Assembly: GCF_022049065.2 (NCBI RefSeq)
Contig: NZ_CP095744.1
Span: forward strand, 310,001 to 374,000
Origin: Niallia sp. Man26
Lineage (GTDB): Bacteria > Bacillota > Bacilli > Bacillales > Cytobacillaceae
DNA: 64,000 nucleotides
Direction: 5' to 3'
A program made the position numbers and the translations under genes. Below, one piece after another: positions 2,997 to 20,163 of the stretch. The notes below the pieces were generated by a model. That model saw nothing but the letters and a program-made list of their open reading frames with translations, ran no database searches and had not been told where the DNA came from. The stretch's first letter is position 1. Each line of letters begins with the position of its first letter.

Positions 2997-3719
2997 TCAA
3001 TTCTTATACTTCATATCCACCACCAAAATATCCCCCATATCATACCGATGCCGAGTTCTTGAATATTCAAACGGAACTCCATTATCCAAATAAACCACTT
3101 GTATCACTTCAAGGACAGGATCTCGTTCTGTACACTTTAAATATTGCTGATCCAATTCATCTGGCTGGTCTGCGCGGATGCGCCTGTTGGCTCCGAGCAT
3201 TGTTAAGCCTAGGTCGTTTTTTATGTAATGATAGATGGATTTTTGGAGAATTTCTTCTGTTATATTTGGGATTACGTGCACTGGCATTATTGTATGCTCG
3301 ATTAAGAATGGTTCTTTATTTAACAGTCTGAAGCGGATAATATCATATATAGGCTGGCTTTTGGAGATCATCAGTTTTTCGCATTCGTCTTCGTTTGGAA
3401 AGCGAACGTTGAATGTGATAATAACGCTTGAAATCGTACCGTTGCCTTTTATTTGTTCTGTTACTCCTACGTATTCATCTGCCCTTGAATCGAGCTTGGA
3501 CATTTGTAAGGCGTTTTTTCTGATAAATGTTCCAGATCCTTGTTTACTGTATATTAAGCCTTCGATTGATAATAAATTTAAGGCTTTTATAATAGTCACT
3601 CTGCTCGTGCCAAATTCTTTTGCCAACCTTTCCTGATCTGGAAGGGGTTTTGATGCATCATATTCATTGTTGATGATTCTATTTCGAATTTGTTCGGCAA
3701 TATCTTTATACTTGACCAT
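2997..3719 (-). CDS. GntR-family (HutC/UTRA) transcriptional regulator
   Basis: 240 aa. A winged helix-turn-helix occupies roughly residues 5-70, with the GntR signatures PLPDQERLAKEFGTSRVTI and GTFI. A UTRA ligand-binding domain follows (about 90-235), including EHTIMPVHVIPNI and EYSRTRHRYD. The ATG is preceded by GAGGTG, which fits. It sits downstream of a GH1 6-phospho-beta-glucosidase and a PTS EIIC, separated from them by a terminator. By analogy with family members controlling phospho-sugar genes, it probably represses that pair and responds to a phosphorylated beta-glucoside; this is inference. Candidate operator boxes lie upstream of the GH1 gene. Confidence 0.9.
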   Translation of the reverse strand: MVKYKDIAEQIRNRIINNEYDASKPLPDQERLAKEFGTSRVTIIKALNLLSIEGLIYSKQGSGTFIRKNALQMSKLDSRADEYVGVTEQIKGNGTISSVIITFNVRFPNEDECEKLMISKSQPIYDIIRFRLLNKEPFLIEHTIMPVHVIPNITEEILQKSIYHYIKNDLGLTMLGANRRIRADQPDELDQQYLKCTERDPVLEVIQVVYLDNGVPFEYSRTRHRYDMGDILVVDMKYKN

Positions 3720-7599: not shown

Positions 7600-8355
7600 T
7601 TAATCTGTAAAAATCCTTTGTTGATTCTTCAGTCGATGACTTTCATTATTCATATGAATAACCTCGACACGATGCAATAATCGATCCAATATTGCAGTCA
7701 TCATTCCTTGATTTCCGACAATCTCTGTCCACTCTTCAGGGCTTCTATTAGAAGTCAGAATTAAAGAACTTTGCTCATATAGTTGGTGGACTAATTGAAA
7801 GAAAAGGGTAGCTTCTCGTTGATCCATTGCCATATACATGATGTCATCAATTATGACCAGATCAGAAGCGCGCAAGCGCTTCAACTGGATCTTAGATTTG
7901 TTTACGTACTCCTCTGTCTTAAGTAAATGCATCAACTCACCCATTGTTATGAAGTATACTTGAAATCCCTTCTGGATTGCTTCAATACCAAGTCCCACGG
8001 AAAGTAGCGTCTTGCCTGCACCTGGCGGTCCAAGTAGTATGAGATTATAGTTTTGTTCAAGCCACTCATATTCACGTAACTGCTTTGATTGCCTTTCAGT
8101 AATTGCGTCTTGTTCCTCGACTCGGAACATATGAATCGGTCTATGATAAGGGAATCGTGCCCAGTTCAATCGCTTTTCAATACTTTTCTCTTCTCGCTTT
8201 TTAAGTTCAAACGTCGTTAATTCTTCCAATAACTCGAGATAGGTCCAAGATTTCTGTTCCGCCTTGCGAAGGAAATCAGTGAGAACATCTGCAGTTTCCA
8301 CCATCCTTAACTGTCGAAAAGATTGCTGGATTTCCATGACACTTTTACTCACCAT
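7600..8355 (-). CDS. istB: IS21-family helper ATPase IstB
   Basis: 251 aa, standard length. It has a Walker A motif GPPGAGKT near residue 107 and a Walker B-like LVIIDDIMYM near 165, with the sensor region LILTSNRSPEEW. This DnaC-like AAA+ protein loads and stimulates the IstA transposase and influences target choice. Its ATG lies inside the end of istA (11-bp overlap), the usual IS21 arrangement for translational coupling. Nothing essential appears missing. Confidence 0.95.
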   Translation of the reverse strand: MVSKSVMEIQQSFRQLRMVETADVLTDFLRKAEQKSWTYLELLEELTTFELKKREEKSIEKRLNWARFPYHRPIHMFRVEEQDAITERQSKQLREYEWLEQNYNLILLGPPGAGKTLLSVGLGIEAIQKGFQVYFITMGELMHLLKTEEYVNKSKIQLKRLRASDLVIIDDIMYMAMDQREATLFFQLVHQLYEQSSLILTSNRSPEEWTEIVGNQGMMTAILDRLLHRVEVIHMNNESHRLKNQQRIFTD

Positions 8356-9883
8356 ATTTTCCTCCCATCAATTGGAGGTATTGATCCATTCCTCTAGTCT
8401 GAACCTCTATATCTATTGGGATTTTGTCGCTCTCCTCTATGATTCTATGTTGCTGATCAAGTGATGTTTGCTTGAGAAATCCCACGACATCACGAAAGCT
8501 ATTGGCGCTGTACAGGCCTTCATCTATACACTTCTCAAGCGCTAAGTGGACCCATTCTTTGTTTTCTTGAGCCACTTTTTTAATCAGTGTGAATTGGTCT
8601 CGTCGATAACGTCCATAGTCTTTGCTGACTTTATCTATGTAGTTTGTCGCTTTTTCATGGGCAAGAAGGGCGATCAGTTCTTGTCTTAATAAGTCGAGCG
8701 ACTTGGACCGCTCACGAGAATGGTTCCTGTTCTTGACTAGTCTCCCTTTATCTTGAGAGATAGAATGCTCCGCAATAATTTCTCCTGTGGAAGGGTCACA
8801 AATCTTCAGTACATAGTCGGCGATGTGTATATGGACTATTGCTTGTCTAGTATATGTACCCACAGGTACAGAATATCGATTCGATTTGAAGTGCACCGTA
8901 TTGTCCTTACGGACATTCCTTGTTATAATTTCAGTATAGTTGCTTTCATAAGAAAGCGGGTTAGAGATCTTTCGCAAGTGTTGCTTTTCCAGGAGAAACA
9001 CTTCGTAAGGTCTCTTTTTAGTTGTATTATGCACCTTGAAGTTTCCGGTTCTTTCAAGCCATTTTAGGCTACGGTTGTTCCAATCTTCCAGTGTAGAATA
9101 CACTCGGTTCTTGGCAAAGTTGTTCTTTATGTATTTTACGACATTCTCGACTTTTCCTTTTGATTCAGGGTCAGCCTTTCTACATAGATACACTCGAAAC
9201 TTTCTTTGCTGAATATATTTTTGGAATCCTTTAGTCAAGATTAGATCTCCTGCATTCTCACTTACCGCAATCAAATTGTCCTGATCATATACAACTTCTT
9301 CAGGGACACCACCATAATATTGAAAAGCTAGTTCATGACAGCGCATGGTGTCCTCGGTGGTGAAGGGTCTGTTGAGCCACCACATATATTTATGTCGGGA
9401 ATGTGCTAGTACGAACGCAATGAAATAGAGGCGTACTTCCTTACCATACATATCCTTTTGAACAGATTGTCTCCAATCCACCTGCAGCTGTTTTCCTGGT
9501 GGTAATTCATCGACAGACTCATATTCACGTGATTCTTCTTTCTTTTCGATTTGATACAGTTCTCTTACTTCATTTACATAGCGTCGCACGGTGCTTTCTC
9601 CGACTTTAATATTTGGAAACCTTTCCTGTAGCCAATCAAAAATCTGAGCTCCACTGAGGGAGGGATATTCCTTCAGCCAATTGACAATCCAATCCCGATA
9701 GGGATCCAATATCTTTTTTCGTTCACCAATATCAAATTCATTTACAGCTTCTTCAAAAGTCATTTCCAAATATTTATACACAGTAGTTCGGGAAATCTTT
9801 AATCTTTTAGCAATTTGAGAAACTCTTAATCTTTGTTTAGTTAATTGGTGAATCTCTAAATATATCATTAACTTTTCCTCCAT
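8345..9883 (-). CDS. istA: IS21-family DDE transposase IstA
   Basis: 512 aa. The N-terminal helix-turn-helix is LRVSQIAKRLKISRTTVYKYL. The DDE catalytic core shows D in LQVDWRQ, D in VVYDQDNL and E in PESKGKVENVVKY. The C-terminal Mu-type part follows. The ATG has GGAGG upstream. It binds the terminal repeats and carries out strand transfer with IstB. The frame is intact. Confidence 0.95.
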   Translation of the reverse strand: MEEKLMIYLEIHQLTKQRLRVSQIAKRLKISRTTVYKYLEMTFEEAVNEFDIGERKKILDPYRDWIVNWLKEYPSLSGAQIFDWLQERFPNIKVGESTVRRYVNEVRELYQIEKKEESREYESVDELPPGKQLQVDWRQSVQKDMYGKEVRLYFIAFVLAHSRHKYMWWLNRPFTTEDTMRCHELAFQYYGGVPEEVVYDQDNLIAVSENAGDLILTKGFQKYIQQRKFRVYLCRKADPESKGKVENVVKYIKNNFAKNRVYSTLEDWNNRSLKWLERTGNFKVHNTTKKRPYEVFLLEKQHLRKISNPLSYESNYTEIITRNVRKDNTVHFKSNRYSVPVGTYTRQAIVHIHIADYVLKICDPSTGEIIAEHSISQDKGRLVKNRNHSRERSKSLDLLRQELIALLAHEKATNYIDKVSKDYGRYRRDQFTLIKKVAQENKEWVHLALEKCIDEGLYSANSFRDVVGFLKQTSLDQQHRIIEESDKIPIDIEVQTRGMDQYLQLMGGKYGE

Positions 9884-13187: not shown

Positions 13188-13551
13188 TTATTGGTAGACT
13201 TTCGCAATAAGATCTTTAAGTATTTTTTGAACTGCCACACCTGATACAGGTATTAATTCATTTACTTTATCTATTATAAATTGATTCTCTAATATTTAGT
13301 TCCTCATCTCGTTATTACTAAGTAACTTTAATAGTATCTGAAGTTCATATTTATTGCAGTTGTTATCCATACAGTATGCTAGTTTTTTTACCATTCTATT
13401 CTATAGGTTTAGCAAGAACATTTGATACTAGAACTTCCTAATCATCTTTGCTAAAATCTGATAGTATTTCACCTGCTATAATACAACCATCGTCATACCA
13501 TGAATCTAATGTAGTTTCAGCAGATCATAAAATATCTAACTCTCTATACAT
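13188..13551 (-). pseudogene. decayed small protein, probable immunity-gene relic
   Basis: Starts with ATG at 13549-13551 after GAAAGGGGATATTAAA, a good ribosome binding site. It reads MYRELDIL, stop, SAETTLDSWYDDG, then GEILSDFSKDD, stop. A frame change leads to MDNNCNKYELQILLKLLSNN and finally KVNELIPVSGVAVQKILKD. At least four stops or shifts are present. Its position at the end of the LXG toxin locus and its size fit an old immunity gene. The family is not recognised. Confidence 0.5.
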
Positions 13552-13590
13552 TTTAATATCCCCTTTCATTATTAGAAAATTAATAACCCG

Positions 13591-13860
13591 ATGGACGTGG
13601 AGCATTACTTTACCTGTTGGTTAACCACTAGTTACATTATCACCCACTTTTATGACATCTTTATTGACTGGTATTTCACTGATTCGAACGGCTTCTTTTA
13701 TCATGCCAGGGCATACGGGACAAATGGTATTGCTCCAATAATGCTTTGGGTAATACTTGCTTGGCGCTGCTCATTAGTGAACTTGATAGTTTGGTGAAAG
13801 TGCGGACATTTTTATAAGCATCTAAAGCATAAAAAGGTGTTTAAATAGGGAATTGGTTGA
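13591..13860 (-). pseudogene. relic of a second LXG toxin gene
   Basis: 13650-13830 is closely similar to the central part of the intact LXG gene (18935-19170), sharing GATTCGAACGGCTTCTTTTA and CATGCTTTGGGTAAT-like stretches. At about 13841 it jumps to GGTGTTTAAATAGGGAATT, which matches the promoter-side sequence near 20253-20275. So a second LXG copy lost about 1.1 kb of its 5' half by internal deletion. It cannot be translated as an LXG protein. Confidence 0.65.
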
Positions 13861-13863
13861 AAA

Positions 13864-14385
13864 TTAAGAACAAAAGGTTAGGAGATAATTGTGTTCCTTT
13901 TTCAGAAAATCATTTAAAAATTTAATCAATCTAGCAACATTCTCTTCTTTAGTGTGCTGAGAAGGAATATAACCATCTTTTGAAGATAAATAATTTACAA
14001 AGTTCTCCATATCCTCAGGATAATTAAAATCTGCGTACACTTCAGCAACTTTGTCTAGCAACTCTTGAATATCATTTTCATATTCCTTTTTCAAACTTTC
14101 GAGTATACAAAACCTCCATTTTCTTTTTTCGAAATTAATATATGAGGATGTATCTTCTAAATCTTTTAGTATATTTTCAAGCAAATCCTTAAAATCATAT
14201 TCATCTCCACCCCAAGCCAGTTGAATAATATCTTGATTATTTATTTCTGGATGATTAGCTAGAAATTCTATCGCATAATTAGTTATATCGATATTTGTTA
14301 TTAAATGAAGTTCTAATCCCACATATAATGTTCTCCAATTGCACTCTATGTTGTTTTTTTTAAAAGAATCTATAGATATATACAC
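13864..14385 (-). CDS. DUF2247-like protein, probable immunity protein of cassette 1
   Basis: 173 aa, soluble, mixed charge. The pattern CNWRTLYVGLELHLITNIDITNYA, then QLAWGG and KRKWRF, fits the DUF2247 family as I recall it; members are often found beside polymorphic toxins. It lies 16 bp after the C-terminal toxin remnant at 14402-15305 in the same direction. That is the normal toxin-immunity order, and protection against that toxin is the likely role. The frame is intact although the toxin upstream is broken. The ribosome binding site is GGGGG about 10 bp before the ATG. Confidence 0.7.
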   Translation of the reverse strand: MYISIDSFKKNNIECNWRTLYVGLELHLITNIDITNYAIEFLANHPEINNQDIIQLAWGGDEYDFKDLLENILKDLEDTSSYINFEKRKWRFCILESLKKEYENDIQELLDKVAEVYADFNYPEDMENFVNYLSSKDGYIPSQHTKEENVARLIKFLNDFLKKEHNYLLTFCS

Positions 14386-14401
14386 TTGAGTTCCCCCAAC
14401 T

Positions 14402-15305
14402 TTATGGTCTTTGATTTGCGATACCTGTTATCTTTCCATTAGGAATAAATCTTCTATGAGTAACACCTTTAGAAGGTTCGACAATCCATTCAAATATTCC
14501 ATTTTGATCTTTTACAATAGTTATTCTCTCTTTAATTCTTTGATCTTTATTAAAAATGTCTTTATCGTCGTAATACTTTATACCACCTTCAATTTGATAT
14601 AATTTATTTTTAATCCATCCCCGCCAATTATTTTGAATTCTTTGGCGTGAGGAGTATAATTATCTATAATATCATTAAATCCATGCTGTCCATTCGGTTT
14701 TTTTAAAGCACTTCCTGAACGTGTAGTATCGAGTACAGGATGTGATATAACTTTACCTGTTCTTTGAGGACCTTCCTTAACCTTCTCCCTTATCTTCCCC
14801 AAATCACCCTTAGAAACCTTAATCGACCTACCAGAAATCTTCCCGCCTCTAAAACCATAAACACTCCCAATTAAACTGCTAAAGATAATGGAATTAGATT
14901 CTAGCTTCGATAACCCTTCTCCAGTCCAAAGATTATATCCTTCTTTGGCTGCTTGGATTTGTTCGAGGTAAATATCTGAATCAGGCTGACTTCTCCCTTT
15001 TTTATAGCCTCATTATTTGCTAGGCTTGCTTTGGCTGCATCTTGATCTGTGAGACCGTTTTTGCCGAGGACCCATGTATTGCCTACGAGCTTTTTCTCGT
15101 ATTGGCTGAAGTCATATTTCACTTCTGAGTTGCCAGCGGTTTTCTTTTCTAAGTAGTGTTTTCTTTGCTGGTACTCTTAACGGAGTGATTGGAAACTCCT
15201 TTGACGTTTTTGTTTACATCGTCTGATTTAAACATAGCCATACTTGGACCAAGTGGAGTAAGTTGGTTGTTTGGTTGATAAATATTTGTCAGGGAGCCTT
15301 TATAT
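14402..15305 (-). pseudogene. orphan LXG C-terminal toxin cassette 1, frameshifted
   Basis: It repeats the linker of the intact LXG protein (KYDFSQYEKKLVG, DQDAAKASLA, SIIFSSLIGSVYGFRGG) and then has its own toxin end: HPVLDTTRSGSALKKPNGQHGF, IIDNYTPHAKEF, then in another frame EGGIKYYDDKD, FEWIVEPSKGVTHRRFIPNGK. Such an FEWI...THRxFxPxG end recurs in Bacillota polymorphic toxins; its exact family name is uncertain. Lesions are a 16-bp deletion near 14985 relative to the other copies, an extra stretch near 15145 and a frameshift near 14615. There is no start codon or LXG domain. It fuses to a recombinase fragment at 15296-15305. Confidence 0.75.
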
Positions 15306-15460
15306 GAACACCTTTACAATATCTGAACTCCATAATCCTTGTGTTGATCACCACCACAAAATCAACTTGGACTGACGAAAGGTGAGCCAACAATTTCTGT
15401 AAGCCCACCCTGTCAATTTCTAATGCTTCTTCATTTAGTTTTGCGCCACTAATTCCTTCA
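14760..15460 (-). repeat. LXG-linker/recombinase repeat, copy A
   Basis: Closely similar to 16640-17324 (copy B), including the recombinase-LXG junction. The linker part alone also matches 18345-18870 in the intact toxin gene. Copies A and B are offset by about 1860 bp. Confidence 0.85.
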
Positions 15461-15595
15461 TCTCTAAAAAAATGTATCAAGTTAAAGTTATTCTCTTCAC
15501 AATATGATTTAATTTCATCTTATTGATATATTCAAGCTGTATCCATCTTTGGCTTGCCCTTGAGTAGAGACTCGTATATACCCAACTACGTTCAA
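15296..15595 (-). pseudogene. truncated serine recombinase (resolvase/invertase N-domain)
   Basis: Starts TTG at 15595 after GGGAGGGGGAAAA and reads NVVGYIRVSTQGQAKDGYSL, with the catalytic serine in RVST. A frameshift near 15520 leads to KSYCEENNFNLIHFFRDEGISG and then LQKLLAHLSSVQVDFVVVIN. A second shift gives LWSSDIVKVFI. There the similarity stops and the sequence becomes LXG linker, across the shared junction ATATAAAGGC (15296-15305). The large-recombinase C-terminal DNA-binding part is absent. It is inactive, but it marks how the cassettes were joined. Confidence 0.8.
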
Positions 15596-16071
15596 CTTTT
15601 CCCCCTCCCGTTACATAAATTTTAATTTTCGTAACGCTTTTTAACGAATAGCGAGTATTATACGACCTTCTCTTGTAAAAATACAACCCAAAACTTTAAG
15701 CCAATGTAGCACAAGCAAACACTTTCATGTTATCCATTATTTATCGCCACGAGCTTTGTCAATCTCGTTAGTTTTTTACCCACTCCATATAATAACTACC
15801 CCTGCCTTGTAAAATGTGTCATCTCGCCTATTTATCGTACTTGTCACTTTATCCGAGTATTAAAACCAAACTCCATGATGGTACTACCATCATGAGCTCT
15901 CGATTCTCAAGCAAAACATTTTCTTATTGTCTCACTCAATTATCAACTGTTTTAATATAAATTAAAGTAAAAAACCTTGAGAGGCATTTAGCCAATCAAG
16001 GTCCTTATATTGTGCTATATCTCTTAAATACCTATATCTAATAAAAAATTTATAAAATCATAAGCAGGCAA
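15596..16071. other. gene-free region with a palindrome and a terminator
   Basis: Between the recombinase relic and the small immunity gene I see no coding signal. A perfect palindrome with 10-bp arms (CATGATGGTA, one central C, then its complement) lies at 15874-15894. A leftward terminator for the immunity gene lies at 15970-16003 (stem ACCTTGA/TCAAGGT, then TTTTTTAC on the minus strand). Confidence 0.6.
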
Positions 16072-16323
16072 TTAAGATTCAATAGTTGTTCGATCAACAA
16101 AATTTTGATTTTCTTTAATAATCATTCTTGAAAGTCGTCTTCCTGCTCTCTTAAAGAAGAATTCATCAGCGAACTCTTGTGAATCAATTTGCGATAGTTG
16201 GTTGGTAACTCCATTTATTTTATCATATTCAATTCGTCCCATTAAATCTTCATTCGGTCCATATTGATAAACCACCCTCTCTTCATCCTCAAATTCCTTC
16301 AACATTAAAACAAAAACTGCCAT
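16072..16323 (-). CDS. small immunity-type protein of cassette 2
   Basis: 83 aa, acidic, no membrane segment. The segment VVYQYGPNEDLMGRIEYDKI and the end FVDRTTIES resemble a group of short proteins encoded directly after polymorphic-toxin C-termini in Bacilli; that is recall, not a search. GAGGAG lies 8-9 bp before the ATG. It follows the inverted and truncated toxin end at 16345-16430, so its partner is no longer made intact. It may persist as an orphan immunity gene protecting against siblings. A terminator follows at 15970-16003. Confidence 0.65.
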   Translation of the reverse strand: MAVFVLMLKEFEDEERVVYQYGPNEDLMGRIEYDKINGVTNQLSQIDSQEFADEFFFKRAGRRLSRMIIKENQNFVDRTTIES

Positions 16324-16344
16324 GAATCTTCACTCCTCATAGTT

Positions 16345-17169
16345 TTTATGGAGTTGGGAGATTTGATCCGGACTACGAACTAGCTCAAGCATGGCAAAGA
16401 TTGATAGATGGGAAACAAGTAAATCCTTTGTATTCTAGCAACAGAAAAGCCTGTATTTTTAGCAATTGCATTCACATCTTCTGTTCCTAGATTTCTAAAT
16501 TTTTCATACATTTCTTCTGCAATAGCTTCTTCCTTAAAGAACTGCTCTGGGGATATATTTCTTCCACCAGTTTCAGCATATTGTATAGAATTACCCGTAC
16601 CCTTAGTAACTTCAGTATTAGCCTTATTTCCCTTTACCTTCTCTTTAACCTTCCCCAAATCACCCTTAGAAACCTTAATCGACCTACTAGTAATCTTCCC
16701 ACCTCTAAAACCATAAACACTCCCAATTAAACTGCTAAAGATAATGGAATTAGATTCTAGCTTCGACAACTCTTCTCCAGTCCAAAGATTATATCCTTCT
16801 TTGGCTGCTTGGATTTGTTCGAGGTAAATATCTGAATCAGGCTCGTTGTCTAACTTGATTTCTCCCTTTTTTATAGCCTCATTATATGCTAGCCTTGCTT
16901 TGGCTGCATCTTGATCTGTGCGGCCATTTTTACTCAGAACCCACGTAGTGCCTACGAGCTTTTTCTCGTATTGGCTGAAGTCATATTTCACTTCTGAGTT
17001 GCCAGCGGTTTTCTTAGTGGTGTTTACTCTGCTGGTACTTTTAACGGAGTGATTGGAAACTCCTTTGACGTTTTTGTTTACATCGTCTGATTTAATCATA
17101 GCCAAACTTGGACCAAGTGGGGTAAGTTGGTTGTTTGGTTGATAAATATTTGTCAGGGAGCCTTTATAT
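16345..17169 (-). pseudogene. orphan LXG C-terminal toxin cassette 2, inverted tip
   Basis: The linker is in frame from TTG at 17105 (AMIKSDDVNKNVKG, then KYDFSQYEKKLVG, GSVYGFRGGK). The toxin part GRNISPEQFFKEEAIAEEMYE, NAIAKNTGFSVARIQRI follows. After QRI the minus frame becomes nonsense (YLFPIYQSLPCLS), because the next piece lies on the opposite strand: plus strand 16345-16430 reads GVGRFDPDYELAQAWQRLI, the expected continuation of this toxin type. The end of the toxin after that is missing. So the cassette lost activity by a micro-inversion and deletion. It has no LXG domain of its own. Confidence 0.75.
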
Positions 17170-17324
17170 GAACACCTTTACAATATCTGAACTCCATAAT
17201 CCTTGTGTTGATCACCACCACAAAATCAACTTGGACTGACGAAAGGTGAGCCAACAATTTCTGTAAGCCCACCCTGTCAATTTCTAATGCTTCTTCATTT
17301 AGTTTTGCGCCACTAATTCCTTAA
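16640..17324 (-). repeat. LXG-linker/recombinase repeat, copy B
   Basis: Counterpart of 14760-15460. Similarity ends at 17324, inside the recombinase fragment (after GAATTAGTGGCGCAAAACTA on the minus strand). Confidence 0.85.
17160..17324 (-). pseudogene. second serine recombinase fragment
   Basis: Carries only the EALEIDRVGLQKLL and VQVDFVVVIN part of the resolvase domain, nearly identical to copy A. It has the same frameshift and the same junction ATATAAAGGC (17160-17169) to LXG linker. The catalytic serine region is absent. Confidence 0.8.
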
Positions 17325-17478
17325 TTGGCAGCAAAGTAATGGAGTATTAGTGGATTATCTACTTTTTTTAACTGGTGATTAAAATATTTTTATCTGTATA
17401 ATAAAGCAACCCTACCAGATAAGTAATTTCTAAGTTAACCATCAACTAAATCAATTCTCCATACCTTTAAGATTTCTC

Positions 17479-17853
17479 TTACTCATAATTTGTAGCAGCA
17501 ATAAAATCAAAAGCACCTGTTGAACTAATTTCATTTTTATATTCAAAATTATATATTAAAATTACTGCATTATATGATTTCTTTAGGTTTATACTTTTCT
17601 GGATTTTTGGGATGACAATTTCTTCATACGAACACCCATCTAATAAAGCTGAAATATCACTACTACTATTCTTATAGACCGCTTTTTCTATAGTATCCTC
17701 ATCTGTTTCATCCATATCAATATTAAAATCGATAAAGAATTGGGAAGGAACAGACTCGCCATCCACATCATACGTTAAATCAACATACTCTCCTATTGAG
17801 TCCTCATCGTTAATATTCCCTAACCAAATTGAAACCCATCCTTGTTTTTCCAT
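17479..17853 (-). CDS. Imm22 family (DUF4284) immunity protein
   Basis: 124 aa. The N-terminal VSIWLGNINDEDSIGEYVDL, followed by SQFFIDFNIDMDETDED and the middle LLDGCSYEE, match the Imm22 (DUF4284) pattern known from polymorphic-toxin loci. It is encoded 12 bp after the LXG toxin with AGGAGG before the ATG, so it should bind and neutralise the C-terminal toxin domain in the cytoplasm. The intact pair makes this the working part of the locus. Confidence 0.88.
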   Translation of the reverse strand: MEKQGWVSIWLGNINDEDSIGEYVDLTYDVDGESVPSQFFIDFNIDMDETDEDTIEKAVYKNSSSDISALLDGCSYEEIVIPKIQKSINLKKSYNAVILIYNFEYKNEISSTGAFDFIAATNYE

Positions 17854-17865
17854 TATAGTATCCTC

Positions 17866-20163
17866 CTACTTTAATCTTAGACCTTGTGGTAAAGACGAAA
17901 CTCCACCCTCTAATCTATAATTAGCCCAATTATTAAGTCGTCTAACAAATGTATTATAGTCGCTAGAAGTATCTATTATTGCTAACAATTCATTATGTGC
18001 TTTAGTTGAGCCTAATCCTCCATGAACACCGTTTGGATTGACAAATTTAACATCGGATATAGCTGTTCTTAAATCTTTAATCTCTTCAGCACCAATATTC
18101 CAATACTTAAATTGCGGAGCCCTTGAAACTAAGTGCCACTCATGTAAACCTCCAGGTTCTCTAAGTTGACGTTCAATTTTCTTTCTAATCTTTTTATCTT
18201 TCCAAAGTTCGTCTAGTTCACTACTTGTAAGGGAATTGAAGAATTTATTAAAATTCCCACTCTTTGCAGTTGGTATATCATCAACAGTTAATTTAGTTAT
18301 ATCTTTAACATTATCTATACCCTTAGTAACTTCAGTATTAGCCTTATTTCCCTTTACCTTCTCCCTTATCTTCCCAAAATCACCCTTAGAAACCTTAATC
18401 GACCTACCAGAAATCCTCCCACCTCTAAAACCATAAACACTCCCAATTAAACTGCTAAAGATAATCGAATTAGATTCTAGCTTCGATAACTCTTCTCCAG
18501 TCCAAAGATTATATCCGTCTTTGGCTGCTTGGATTTGTTCGAGGTAAATATCTGAATCAGGCTCGTTGTCTAACTTGATTTCTCCCTTTTTTATAGCCTC
18601 ATTATATGCTAGGCTGGCTTTGGCTGCATCTTGATCTGTGCGGCCATTTTTACTCAGAACCCACGTAGTGCCTACGAGCTTTTTCTCGTATTGACTGAAG
18701 TCATATTTCACATCTGAGTTGCCAGCGGTTTTCTTAGTGGTGTTTTCTTTGCTGGTGCTTTTAACAGAATGATTGGAAACTTTCTTTACGTTATTGTTTA
18801 CATCGTGTGATTTAAACATAGCCATACTTGGACCAAGTGGAGAGAGTTGGCTGTTAGGTTGAAAGATATTTGTCATAAAGCCTTTATATTTTAATTGGCT
18901 TTTGCTTAATCCAGTTTGCACTAGCTGGTATGTTTTATGGACTGGTAGTTCACTGATTCGAACGGCTTCTTTTATCATGCCAGGGGCATATGGGACAAAT
19001 GGAATTGCTCCAATCATGCTTTGGGTAATGCTTGCTTGGCGCTGTTCATCTGTGAGCTTGTTGCCGAACATATCTTTTCCTGTTAGATATTCCGATAGTC
19101 CATTTGCTGAAATAAGGCCATAAATGCCCATTTCTGTTTGTTCTAGTTTAGTAAAGGTGCGGACATTTTTATAAGCGTCAAGCGCATGATCGGCTGTATT
19201 AATCGCTTTTGTTGCTGAATAAATGCCTTTGCCGCCTTTAAGGGCTCTTCCTGCCCAGCCTACAATTGGAATGAAGCCTGCTGCTGCCATTGCGCCAGCG
19301 GCTACTCGTTGTCCTGCCGTCAACTTTGCACCTGTAACGTGATCAACTCCGTCTTTAGCTCGTATGTAGTCATAATAACCAGTTAGTTCTCCGGCGAAGG
19401 TTTTCGTGCCCTCCCATAGGTCTTCATACCATGGGCGGTTTGCTATTTCCCTTGCTTCTTTCTCTTCCTTTTTATAGGAGAGATAGCTGTTAGTTTGTGT
19501 CTTTGCTTCTACCATGGACTGATATGCATCACTAGATTGATAGGCTTCTGCATCAAAATGGATGGGTGAAATACTGCTTCCTTGTCTTGTTGCTTCCATT
19601 AAAGATTGGAAAAGGGCTTGAACATAATACTCTTCTCCTTGTGAAGAGAGATATTCGTCTTTTAACTCTTGATCGACTTCCTCGACTGCATCCACCGTTT
19701 TGGTACGTTTTTTGCTTGCATCCATCATCAGATCGTCAAACCGGGAGCGAGAAAAGGGTGTTAAAGACACTAGATCATCAATGTCCCTAAAAATTTGCTC
19801 TAACGCTTTTCGTTGCTCACTAATCATTTCGTCTGCACGACGTTCTCTATGTGCAAGCTCTTCTTCTAAAAAAGCTGTTTCCACACGAGAATGGCCACCT
19901 AAGTCTTTATCTTCTAGCCTTGCACTTAGTCCTTCAAAGAAGGCAATCTGTCTGTCAATCAGCCGCTGCCATGCTTCTACCACTTCCAGCTGGCCCTGAT
20001 AAAAACCTTTAATTGATTCAGCACCTTTGCCTTCAAAGTCATCTAAATCAACAATTTCCTGGAAGGCTTTGTGCAGCTGTGTAAACTGTGTGCGCAGTTC
20101 TTTATAGTGCTTGGCCCTTCCTTTCATTGTATCACGTAAACTAGATGCATCTAAAACTTTCAT
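17866..20163 (-). CDS. LXG polymorphic toxin with PT-TG region and nuclease-like C-terminus
   Basis: 765 aa. The N-terminal LXG domain (about 1-210, starting MKVLDASSLRDTMKGRAKHY) directs export through the type VII (ESX/Yuk) system. A pre-toxin TG-like hydrophobic/glycine region lies around 275-390 (GAMAAAGFIPIVGWAGRALKGG). The repeated linker is at about 440-600. The C-terminal toxin (about 620-765) has LREPGGLHEWHLVSR, FVNPNGVHGGLGSTKAHNE and RRLNNWANYRLEGG. The histidine pattern suggests an HNH/EndoVII-like nuclease, but I cannot prove that. The ATG follows GAGAGGCG. No LXG chaperone-type small genes lie directly upstream. Imm22 follows at once. Confidence 0.9.
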   Translation of the reverse strand: MKVLDASSLRDTMKGRAKHYKELRTQFTQLHKAFQEIVDLDDFEGKGAESIKGFYQGQLEVVEAWQRLIDRQIAFFEGLSARLEDKDLGGHSRVETAFLEEELAHRERRADEMISEQRKALEQIFRDIDDLVSLTPFSRSRFDDLMMDASKKRTKTVDAVEEVDQELKDEYLSSQGEEYYVQALFQSLMEATRQGSSISPIHFDAEAYQSSDAYQSMVEAKTQTNSYLSYKKEEKEAREIANRPWYEDLWEGTKTFAGELTGYYDYIRAKDGVDHVTGAKLTAGQRVAAGAMAAAGFIPIVGWAGRALKGGKGIYSATKAINTADHALDAYKNVRTFTKLEQTEMGIYGLISANGLSEYLTGKDMFGNKLTDEQRQASITQSMIGAIPFVPYAPGMIKEAVRISELPVHKTYQLVQTGLSKSQLKYKGFMTNIFQPNSQLSPLGPSMAMFKSHDVNNNVKKVSNHSVKSTSKENTTKKTAGNSDVKYDFSQYEKKLVGTTWVLSKNGRTDQDAAKASLAYNEAIKKGEIKLDNEPDSDIYLEQIQAAKDGYNLWTGEELSKLESNSIIFSSLIGSVYGFRGGRISGRSIKVSKGDFGKIREKVKGNKANTEVTKGIDNVKDITKLTVDDIPTAKSGNFNKFFNSLTSSELDELWKDKKIRKKIERQLREPGGLHEWHLVSRAPQFKYWNIGAEEIKDLRTAISDVKFVNPNGVHGGLGSTKAHNELLAIIDTSSDYNTFVRRLNNWANYRLEGGVSSLPQGLRLK

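What the first reader, a model, noticed from the sequence alone, without database searches (positions are those of the whole stretch)
13188..20163. Serial LXG toxin cassettes joined to a truncated serine recombinase
Behind the intact LXG-Imm22 pair lie two orphan C-terminal cassettes, each with linker, toxin end and immunity gene. Both linkers begin at the same point, ATATAAAGGC, where the upstream sequence switches to a serine-recombinase N-domain. One recombinase copy still has the RVST catalytic region. The intact gene has similar sequence (TATAAAGGC) at the same place. This suggests toxin ends were swapped in or parked by recombination at this short sequence, then duplicated by about 1.86 kb. 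A recombinase fragment at every orphan boundary is not part of the usual description of LXG loci.
Basis: partly seen in the sequence, partly recalled or inferred. Interest (0 to 1): 0.75.

Follow-up and report, generated by a model that had tools for sequence, protein, structure and literature searches.

The report
Jumping element that swaps toxin tips
The recombinase scraps beside these orphan toxin ends are remains of a mobile element, intact in related bacteria, that appears to use a short guide RNA to insert a new toxin tip and its antidote gene at a fixed point in bacterial toxin genes, pushing the old tip aside.

Summary
Behind the intact LXG-Imm22 pair lie two decayed toxin-tip cassettes. 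Each begins with a serine-recombinase fragment joined to an LXG linker at ATATAAAGGC. That joint, however, is a private short-homology fusion, later copied; none of 12 other congener genomes shows it.

The recombinase itself is not incidental. In relatives (258 aa) an IS110 transposase follows it in 41 of 44 cases. Of 48 related IS110 ends, 41 meet a toxin tip at GGGTA, the start of codons for K-G-T-G-N. Two complete modules (tip, immunity, recombinase, guide loop, IS110, right end) are each shared by two genera inside unrelated genes, with AAGG|GTA at both edges. Closely related LXG carriers change tip exactly there.

The recombinase-IS110 spacer folds into an internal loop whose guide matches the junction and covaries with it: CGTACC/GGTACG, CGTCCC/GGGACG, CGTATC/GATACG (30 of 49 own matches; 0 of 20,000 permutations as good).

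Best explanation: an IS110-family, bridge-RNA-like element carrying a toxin tip and immunity gene. It inserts in frame at conserved toxin junctions and demotes the old tip to an orphan. The serine recombinase's role is open. Nothing was tested experimentally.

The parts
17866..20163 (-). Intact LXG toxin gene: LXG domain, PT-TG pre-toxin domain, linker, HNH-like tip (tip begins at the junction 18327..18311)
   Evidence: PF04740 and PF14449. The label HNH-like is mine by eye; Pfam reports no domain in the tip. Carrier 80-98% identical per 100 bp of coding sequence to two LXG genes of G012 up to the junction, then unrelated.
18311..18327 (-). Tip junction ACTAAGGGTATAGATAA (T-K-G-I-D-N): inferred insertion site of the tip module
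   Evidence: Position. The same tip starts at AAGG|GTATAG in 8 of 12 loci compared (window included), with unrelated upstream DNA.
17479..17853 (-). Immunity gene Imm22 (DUF4284)
   Evidence: PF14112, 81.6 bits.
17326..17442 (-). Truncated start of a DUF4274 gene that belongs to the same tip module elsewhere
   Evidence: By eye (MVNLEITYLVGLLYYTDKN...) against L025:8031-8486 (PF14096).
17170..17325 (-). O1: fragment of the serine recombinase gene of the tip module
   Evidence: 97% to the O2 copy over a 300-bp repeat and 89.6% to L025; recombinase part 99.4% identical to O2.
17160..17169 (-). Private fusion point ATATAAAGGC, recombinase to LXG linker (O1)
16608..17169 (-). O1: copy of the LXG linker
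   Evidence: tblastn with the LXG linker, 88%.
16591..16607 (-). O1 tip junction ACTAAGGGTACGGGTAA (T-K-G-T-G-N)
   Evidence: Exact match; the same tip is fused at the same junction to a 587-aa carrier in G007 that has no Pfam match.
16346..16601 (-). O1 toxin tip, broken (76-bp inverted piece 16346-16421 and missing stretches)
   Evidence: blastn against the G007 tip.
16072..16323 (-). O1 immunity gene (83 aa, no Pfam family)
   Evidence: a very similar 83-aa gene follows the same tip in G007 (by eye).
15637..15896 (-). Element leader: hairpin CATGATGGTAGTACCATCATG (15874-15894) and promoter-like TTGTAT...TATAAT (15688..15651)
   Evidence: Conserved upstream of type A recombinase genes in many loci. 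The promoter is a resemblance by eye.
15609..15636 (-). 28-bp quasi-palindrome CGTTACGAAAATTAAAATTTATGTAACG just upstream of the recombinase start
   Evidence: Pattern CGTTAC-N16-GTAACG at 35 places in the loci, this one included; similar sites upstream of recombinase genes in class-level loci.
15306..15595 (-). O2: 5' part of the serine recombinase gene, frameshifted
   Evidence: tblastn pieces REC 1-21 and 23-85 at 95% and 76%; weak PF00239 match.
15296..15305 (-). Private fusion point ATATAAAGGC (O2)
14776..15305 (-). O2: copy of the LXG linker, frameshifted
   Evidence: Three tblastn pieces, frames.
14411..14775 (-). O2 toxin tip, frameshifted; no relative among the loci then fetched
   Evidence: frames; one search finds only the window itself.
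13864..14385 (-). O2 immunity-like gene (DUF2247)
   Evidence: PF10004, 130 bits.
13660..13846 (-). Debris of another LXG carrier gene
   Evidence: Direct-repeat families D5, D6, D8; LXG residues 321-346 and 369-400.

Best explanation
The window holds decayed remains of a mobile module. In its complete form (relatives) the module reads: toxin C-terminal domain (tip) - immunity gene(s) - leader - 28-bp palindrome - 258-aa serine recombinase - guide-loop RNA - IS110-family recombinase - right end. Proposed mechanism. (1) The module leaves as a circle by IS110 recombination (inferred from IS110 biology, not shown). (2) An internal loop of the RNA between the two recombinase genes pairs with a conserved site in polymorphic toxin genes: ACTAAGG|GTACG, codons T-K-G-T, for the element types of the window's order; other sites for elements from other families of the class. 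(Shown: loop structure with compensatory changes, match to the site, and covariation of guide and site. Not shown: that the RNA is made or binds.) (3) IS110 inserts the circle there. The module's tip is fused in frame to the carrier, its immunity gene follows, and the old tip with its immunity gene is pushed behind the right end as an orphan without a start (shown as anatomy). (4) Repetition builds arrays of parked tips; immunity to former tips is kept (inferred). (5) In the window, IS110 and most of the recombinase were lost and the remnant fused to LXG linker copies at ATATAAAGGC, then duplicated. The serine recombinase may act at the palindrome, for example resolving tandem modules; that is conjecture.
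For: Pairing: 41 of 44 recombinase copies (at least 55% identity, C-terminus present, at least 500 bp beyond) have IS110 within 700 bp; one L081 gene is counted as two pieces, so 40 of 43 places. 12 of 14 class-level regions fetched also have it. IS110 assignment: PF01548 + PF02371, relative of the IS621 recombinase. Right end: one search lists 51 IS110 C-terminal ends; 2 are unrelated IS110s (25% identity) and one place is listed twice. Of the remaining 48, 41 have the right end directly followed by GGGTA: 33 by the script's pattern, 8 more by eye (seven with one or two changes in the pattern, one with an N). Left side: 41 of 50 recombinase genes with start and at least 2.5 kb upstream have an in-frame junction plus tip of at least 45 codons upstream, against 0.201 at random positions in the same loci; 7 more lay too near an edge. 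Mobile unit: one module shared by Oceanobacillus L024 and Psychrobacillus L034 (4220/3851 bp), AAGG|GTA at both edges, no similarity in 2 kb on either side. A second shared by congener G003 and G021 (3629/3643 bp, 87.5% over its whole length), AAGG|GTA at both edges, nothing similar on the left (1974 and 875 bp available) and nothing in the first kb on the right; weaker similarity (79-80%) begins 1039 bp beyond. Upstream DNA unrelated in 25 of 27 pairs that share a tip from the junction on. Swap in closely related carriers: window LXG versus two G012 LXG genes. Guide: 25 spacers fold into stem plus internal loop; 8 of 22 pairs have changes on both sides. The complement of the 6-nt guide is present in the element's own downstream DNA in 30 of 49; permutations mean 17.78, sd 2.11, 0 of 20,000 reach 30. 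By class: GATACG 5 of 5 own versus 0 of 44 others; GGGACG 3 of 4 versus 1 of 45; GGTACG 22 of 34 versus 2 of 15.
Against: Nothing is experimental. Single-sequence folding of the spacer is not clearly better than shuffles in any of 4 tested (z 0.16, -1.51, 0.42, -0.44). Published IS110 bridge RNAs have a target loop and a donor loop (PMC11208160, passages read). In modules of types A and B I found one loop only (pattern search). The 42% relative L106 has two (the first by eye), as has L200 at 3235 (by eye). The 5'/3' order of the guides was not checked against IS621. 19 of 49 elements lack an exact 6-nt match, including 4 of 4 with guide TGTACC. The type A left guide ACTAAGG matches many carriers but not its own right end (ACATAGG). 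9 of 50 recombinase genes have no tip upstream, and 3 of the 41 hits look like chance. 7 of 48 IS110 ends lack the junction. The regex was the third attempt; those were out of register (one search gave 272 of 10,000 permutations, one search gave 1,033 of 20,000), and even mis-registers L202. Elements within a class are related, so the permutation counts are not independent events: there are three guide classes plus one (L206) seen only by eye. The circle has not been seen. In the window genome no intact copy of either recombinase was found.
Confidence: 0.8

Rival explanations
1. The recombinase-IS110 pair is an ordinary insertion element that happens to target the conserved tip junction, as the IS1111-attC group targets integron cassette sites (recalled). 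Tips and immunity genes are moved by other recombination.
For: The right end is at the junction in 41 of 48; IS110 elements are known for site specificity (PMC11208160, passages).
Against: It predicts carrier linker directly left of the element. Instead a tip lies upstream in 41 of 50, and two complete modules including tip and immunity gene are each shared by two genera with unrelated flanks.
Confidence: 0.12
2. Tips are exchanged by homologous recombination among arrays and carriers, and the recombinase fragments are passive debris.
For: Linker copies in the window (about 560 bp, 75-97% identical by segment) would allow it; recombination of orphan tips is described for Rhs, CdiA and MafB (PMC4287609, passages) and for polymorphic toxins in general (PMC3482391, passages).
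Against: Exchange edges sit at one 7-12 bp site with unrelated upstream DNA in 25 of 27 pairs, too short for ordinary homologous recombination; guide-site covariation is unexplained.
Confidence: 0.06
3. One reading: exchange at ATATAAAGGC by the serine recombinase.
For: Both orphans share the joint.
Against: No match continuing across the joint in the 12 other congener genomes searched; the joint is explained by short homology; the two copies are nearly identical.
Confidence: 0.02

Closest known systems
IS110 family and bridge RNAs (IS621; PMC11208160, passages read)
   Same: DEDD (PF01548) and Transposase_20 (PF02371) domains, IS621 sequence similarity, structured RNA before the gene with an internal loop whose sides match the two halves of the site including a shared core.
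   Different: Carries a toxin tip and immunity gene that end up in frame with the host gene; paired with a serine recombinase; one guide loop seen in types A and B; the left edge of the module is protein-coding toxin sequence.
Polymorphic toxin cassettes (Zhang et al. 2012, PMC3482391, passages read)
   Same: Standalone tip plus immunity cassettes behind a full toxin gene; new tip brings its immunity gene; strings of old immunity genes.
   Different: In the passages read the exchange machinery is left open (XerC/D-type recombinases are noted only beside polyimmunity loci). Here a candidate enzyme, guide and site are identified.
MafB-CT cassettes of Neisseria (PMC4287609, passages read)
   Same: Arrays of C-terminal cassettes, some silent, each followed by immunity genes.
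   Different: In the passages read recombination is inferred from genome comparison and no guide element is described; restricted to Neisseria.
Recombinase-associated acquired interbacterial defence clusters of Bacteroidales (PMC12247911 seen in search listings only)
   Same: Recombinase-linked accumulation of immunity genes.
   Different: Tyrosine recombinase and immunity genes without toxin tips (recalled); here IS110 plus a serine recombinase, with tips.
Integrons (recalled)
   Same: Arrays of cassettes with one expressed first position.
   Different: The module's recombinases are of serine and DEDD type, each module carries its own, and the first cassette is expressed as a protein fusion.

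Membership tests
IS110 family | DEDD_Tnp_IS110 plus Transposase_20 domains | tested here: met
   79.3 and 73.6 bits, above the curated cut-offs, for the one protein scanned (L025:4165-5400).
IS110 family | Structured RNA in the non-coding end with guide loops matching target and donor | tested here: inconclusive
   Loop, compensatory pairs and guide-site covariation found; a second loop not found in types A and B; single-sequence energies not significant.
IS110 family | Site-specific insertion sharing a short core at both edges | tested here: met
   AAGG|GTA at both edges of two complete modules, each in two genera.
IS110 family | Circular intermediate | not testable with these tools
   Needs junction PCR or reads.
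Large serine recombinase | Resolvase N-domain followed by Recombinase domain PF07508 | tested here: met
   PF00239 89 bits and PF07508 38.5 bits (L025 copy).
Large serine recombinase | Zinc-ribbon and coiled-coil C-terminal region | tested here: not met
   Pfam reports no zinc-ribbon domain and the protein ends near the end of PF07508; 99 of the 120 relatives listed are 258-262 aa. It is a shortened relative, not a standard member. Coiled coils were not tested.
LXG polymorphic toxin | LXG domain, pre-toxin domain, variable tip, following immunity gene | tested here: met
   PF04740, PF14449, PF14112.
Integron | IntI tyrosine recombinase | tested here: not met
   The two recombinases of the module are of serine and DEDD type.
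Integron | attC sites | not tested
   Not searched for.

The most novel reading that the evidence does not exclude
A new class of RNA-guided domain-exchange system: a conserved pair of recombinases (serine plus IS110) with a guide RNA whose niche is polymorphic toxin genes. It swaps the toxin's C-terminal domain in frame together with its immunity gene and keeps the old ones as an immunity-providing archive. Different lineages are re-aimed by changing the guide to other conserved toxin motifs (K-G-T-G-N linker, RHS D-T-Y-x-G motif, possibly the HINT pre-toxin motif). Because donor and target share one half, one guide loop may serve both partners.
Probability: 0.6. Interest if true: 0.95.

Novelty: new variant of a known kind. 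Interest (0 to 1): 0.85.

Why it matters
That polymorphic toxins change their tips together with the immunity gene has been inferred from genome comparisons since at least 2012 (PMC3482391, passages read), but in those passages the machinery was left open. Here is a specific candidate machine with a site, a guide and an enzyme related to IS621. It occurs in several families of the window's order and class; relatives of the recombinase alone number 1,350 protein clusters at E 1e-30 or better, not all of which need belong to such modules. It would also be a natural use of bridge-RNA-type recombination: domain swapping inside genes. It offers a reason why orphan tips and strings of immunity genes sit behind toxin genes, and it predicts where new tips will enter.

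Tried and rejected
Rejected:
- ATATAAAGGC as a recombination site.
- The recombinase as a private accident: its relatives turned up in loci fetched with the LXG toxin as query, not with the recombinase.
- A plain insertion element without cargo.
- Rfam had no match to the spacer RNA in the two loci searched (E up to 0.1); only a tmRNA appeared.
- Plasmid collection: three records, none with an intact close copy. Phage and E. coli collections were not searched.
- Pfam names nothing for 7 of 7 tip and immunity proteins, nor for the G007 carrier. Those that are named include a DNA/RNA non-specific endonuclease, YezG-like immunity, Syd, SUKH, DUF4274 and WHH nuclease.
- Two guide parsers were out of register and are void as tests. 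The rule used was taken from the alignment columns.
- Literature: seven searches aimed at such a system matched 37, 1, 26, 12, 2, 1 and 0 papers; of the 20, 1, 20, 12, 2, 1 and 0 listed, no title or abstract start describes it. One search looked for bridge-RNA papers and for a comparator. The library holds open-licence PMC papers only.

Counts made by hand from listings: 48 and 41; 21 carrier-fused and 15 right-end-preceded tips (the script's own right-end flag did not print); 10 tip clusters in both states; 8 of 12. Carrier junctions were selected for TAAGGGTA, so their left-base counts are conditional, and a few (for example L019) look like chance. L158 was dropped as the genome of L022.
Full report
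What is in the window. All genes named here are on the minus strand. The intact LXG gene (20163..17866) has LXG and PT-TG domains and is followed by an Imm22 gene (17853..17479). Two more linker copies follow. O1 has a recombinase fragment (17325..17170), linker, tip junction (16607..16591), a broken tip and an 83-aa immunity gene (16323..16072). O2 has a longer recombinase fragment (15595..15306), a frameshifted linker and tip, and a DUF2247 gene (14385..13864). Both fragments meet the linker at ATATAAAGGC. The congener recombinase (G007) reads GTGTTGATACAAGGAGAG there and the LXG gene AAAATATAAAGGCTTT, so the joint is a short-homology fusion. The recombinase stretches of O1 and O2 are 99.4% identical. 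Of 13 genomes of the genus, the window's own included, 6 have a match to the query across the joint, but only the window's own continues from recombinase into linker; G007 stops five bases into the shared ten. The joint is best read as one private event, later copied.

The recombinase belongs to an element. Four loci fetched with the LXG protein as query and matched through its toxin tip (Terribacillus L022, Priestia L025, Aquibacillus L031, Bacillus L027) contain recombinase DNA 77-93% identical to the window fragment; Oceanobacillus L024 and Psychrobacillus L034 contain it at 73-75% over their longer matches. The intact L025 copy encodes 258 aa (PF00239 plus PF07508); 99 of the 120 relatives listed, out of 1,350 clusters at E 1e-30, have 258-262 aa. 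In 41 of 44 recombinase copies with a C-terminus an IS110 gene follows within 700 bp (40 of 43 places, because one L081 gene was counted as two pieces); the exceptions are L022, L039 and L084. IS110 is assigned by Pfam and by similarity to IS621. Two versions, here called A and B and about 66% identical in DNA, have the same order. Recombinase relatives were found in 37 of 193 family genomes at E 1e-20, which includes distant recombinases of about 30% identity, in 18 of 397 order genomes at E 1e-40 and in 29 of 398 class genomes at E 1e-60. IS110 relatives at E 1e-40 were found in 12 of 193 family genomes, not in the window's own. The window genome has only the two recombinase fragments. The genus is probably Niallia: G012 contig 2 has the length and hit position of Niallia taxi NZ_CP102590.1.

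Where the element ends. The right end lies 45-68 bp after IS110 and is AAGATTACAACATA (A) or AGATATTCCTAA (B), followed at once by GGGTA and a toxin tip. Of 48 distinct related IS110 ends, 41 show this (33 by pattern, 8 by eye); L025:5397, L078, L153:16664, L160:13155, L162:4569, L167 and L171 do not. GGGTACGGGTAA is read in frame as (K)-G-T-G-N at the start of tips. In 85 distinct junctions, 42 lie behind a right end and 43 are fused to an open frame of at least 100 codons upstream; 77 tips of at least 40 aa fall into 46 clusters, and ten clusters occur in both states (the ten counted by hand). Carriers include LXG proteins (window; G012; L153) and long open frames of up to 2,746 codons before the junction, which look RHS/YD-like by eye in L079 but were not scanned. 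The G007 carrier has no Pfam match.

What moves. Left of the recombinase there is usually a tip: 41 of 50, with 9 lacking it and 3 of the 41 probably chance, against 0.201 for random positions. The window's HNH-like tip is 92-99% identical in DNA in 11 other genera (three further loci match only weakly, at 70-80%). It begins at AAGG|GTATAG in 8 of these 12 loci, window included; L026, L027, L028 and L029 differ by a few bases at the edge. The upstream DNA (1.5 kb; only 487 and 339 bp in L027 and L028) is unrelated apart from one weak pair, L023 and L030. Oceanobacillus L024 and Psychrobacillus L034 share one block from that point through immunity genes, leader, recombinase, IS110 and right end (4220 and 3851 bp, the shorter with an internal gap in IS110), bounded by AAGG|GTA on both sides, with no similarity in 2 kb beyond either edge. 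A second module, shared by the congener G003 and by G021, is 3629 and 3643 bp long, aligns end to end at 87.5%, has AAGG|GTA on both sides, unrelated left flanks (1974 and 875 bp available), and no similarity in the first kilobase on the right; similarity of 79-80% starts 1039 bp beyond the edge, not analysed further. Over 27 pairs sharing a tip from the junction on, 25 have unrelated DNA in the 600 bp upstream; in the two others both tips lie behind an element right end. The window LXG gene and two LXG genes of G012 are 80-98% identical per 100 bp of coding sequence and unrelated after ACTAAGGGTA. The mobile unit is therefore tip plus immunity gene plus recombinases, not the recombinases alone. 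Arrays of such modules exist in G062 and G236.

The guide. The spacer between the two recombinase genes aligns across 25 elements and folds into an outer stem, an internal loop and an inner hairpin; 8 of 22 predicted pairs change on both sides. Folding energies of four single spacers are not clearly better than shuffles. The two sides of the loop read CGTACC(AAT or CTT) and (A/C)CTAAGG. By the published rule for bridge RNAs (PMC11208160, passages read) such a loop would recognise ACTAAGGGTACG or CCTAAGGGTACG with core GG, which is the tip junction. A guide CGTCCC goes with a right end followed by GGGGACGGG, the same amino acids with another glycine codon. A guide CGTATC goes with GGATACGTAT, inside the RHS motif D-T-Y-x-G. 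One element (L206, by eye) has ACCCTTC and GAAGGG in front of a HINT-like motif (motif names by eye). With a rule taken from the alignment, 30 of 49 elements contain the complement of their own guide in the 156 bp around and after the IS110 end; permuted guides give 17.78 on average, sd 2.11, and none of 20,000 reach 30; shuffled downstream DNA contains the 6-mer in 2.2%. L206 could not be parsed and L202 was parsed in a wrong register; both were left as the rule gave them. The two earlier parsers gave weaker results (272 of 10,000 and 1,033 of 20,000 permutations as good) because they read the wrong bases. Elements in a class share descent, so the independent evidence is the agreement in three classes.

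Mechanism. IS110 elements excise as circles and insert at guide-matched sites (PMC11208160). A circle opened at the junction would place its own tip in frame behind the carrier and leave leader, recombinases and right end between the new immunity gene and the old tip. That is the observed order. The circle, the transcript and the reaction have not been seen. The serine recombinase has a conserved 28-bp palindrome between promoter-like sequence and start codon (35 places; similar sites in class-level loci). Elements with a leader of one type and a recombinase of the other change at or near it (L083, L025:9129; by eye). This suggests, but does not show, that it acts or binds there.

The window read in this light. 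LXG carrier | HNH-like tip, Imm22, truncated DUF4274, recombinase remnant | linker copy, old tip 1 and its immunity gene | leader, recombinase remnant, linker copy, old tip 2 and its immunity gene. In G007 tip 1 is still fused to a 587-aa carrier and is followed by an intact recombinase gene, an IS110 gene that looks frameshifted, and a further tip. The linker copies may now allow ordinary recombination between expressed gene and orphans; that is inference.

Novelty. By family this is an IS110 element, so I rate it a new variant of a known kind. As a way of exchanging protein domains I know of no precedent, and seven literature searches listed none.

Noticed in passing
window 16346-16421: The O1 toxin tip contains a 76-bp stretch in inverted orientation relative to the same tip in G007, with stretches missing on both sides of it.
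   Followed up: partly
L209:7620-8483 (minus), L203:5088-5981, L202:6471-7475: Class-level modules carry an extra gene of 287-334 aa between immunity gene and recombinase. One copy matches Rep_trans (replication initiation factor) weakly, 19.4 bits, below the curated cut-off, another matches nothing, and the third was not scanned. If real, the module circle might replicate.
   Followed up: partly
L106 (G020 contig 1, near 3646041): An IS110 relative (42% identity) has two guide-like loops of the same grammar upstream of its gene (near 1235 and 1382 of the locus), sharing one guide half and differing in the other. Its surroundings were not analysed.
   Followed up: partly
L200, spacer upstream of the IS110 gene at 3235 (reverse strand coordinates): An RHS-targeting element with two guide loops: same right guide CGTATC, different left guides, as expected for a donor loop and a target loop.
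   Followed up: no
L076 and L089: The same tip with 98% identical downstream DNA over about 2 kb sits behind a type A element in G022 and a type B element in G021, joined at the same site.
   Followed up: no
window 8345-9883 (minus): IstA-like transposase gene (rve, Mu-transpos_C_2; the name IstA is recalled) a few kb from the LXG remnants.
   Followed up: no
L169 and L170: More distant recombinases (about 45-47% identity) without an IS110 hit in the fetched regions; their context was not analysed.
   Followed up: no
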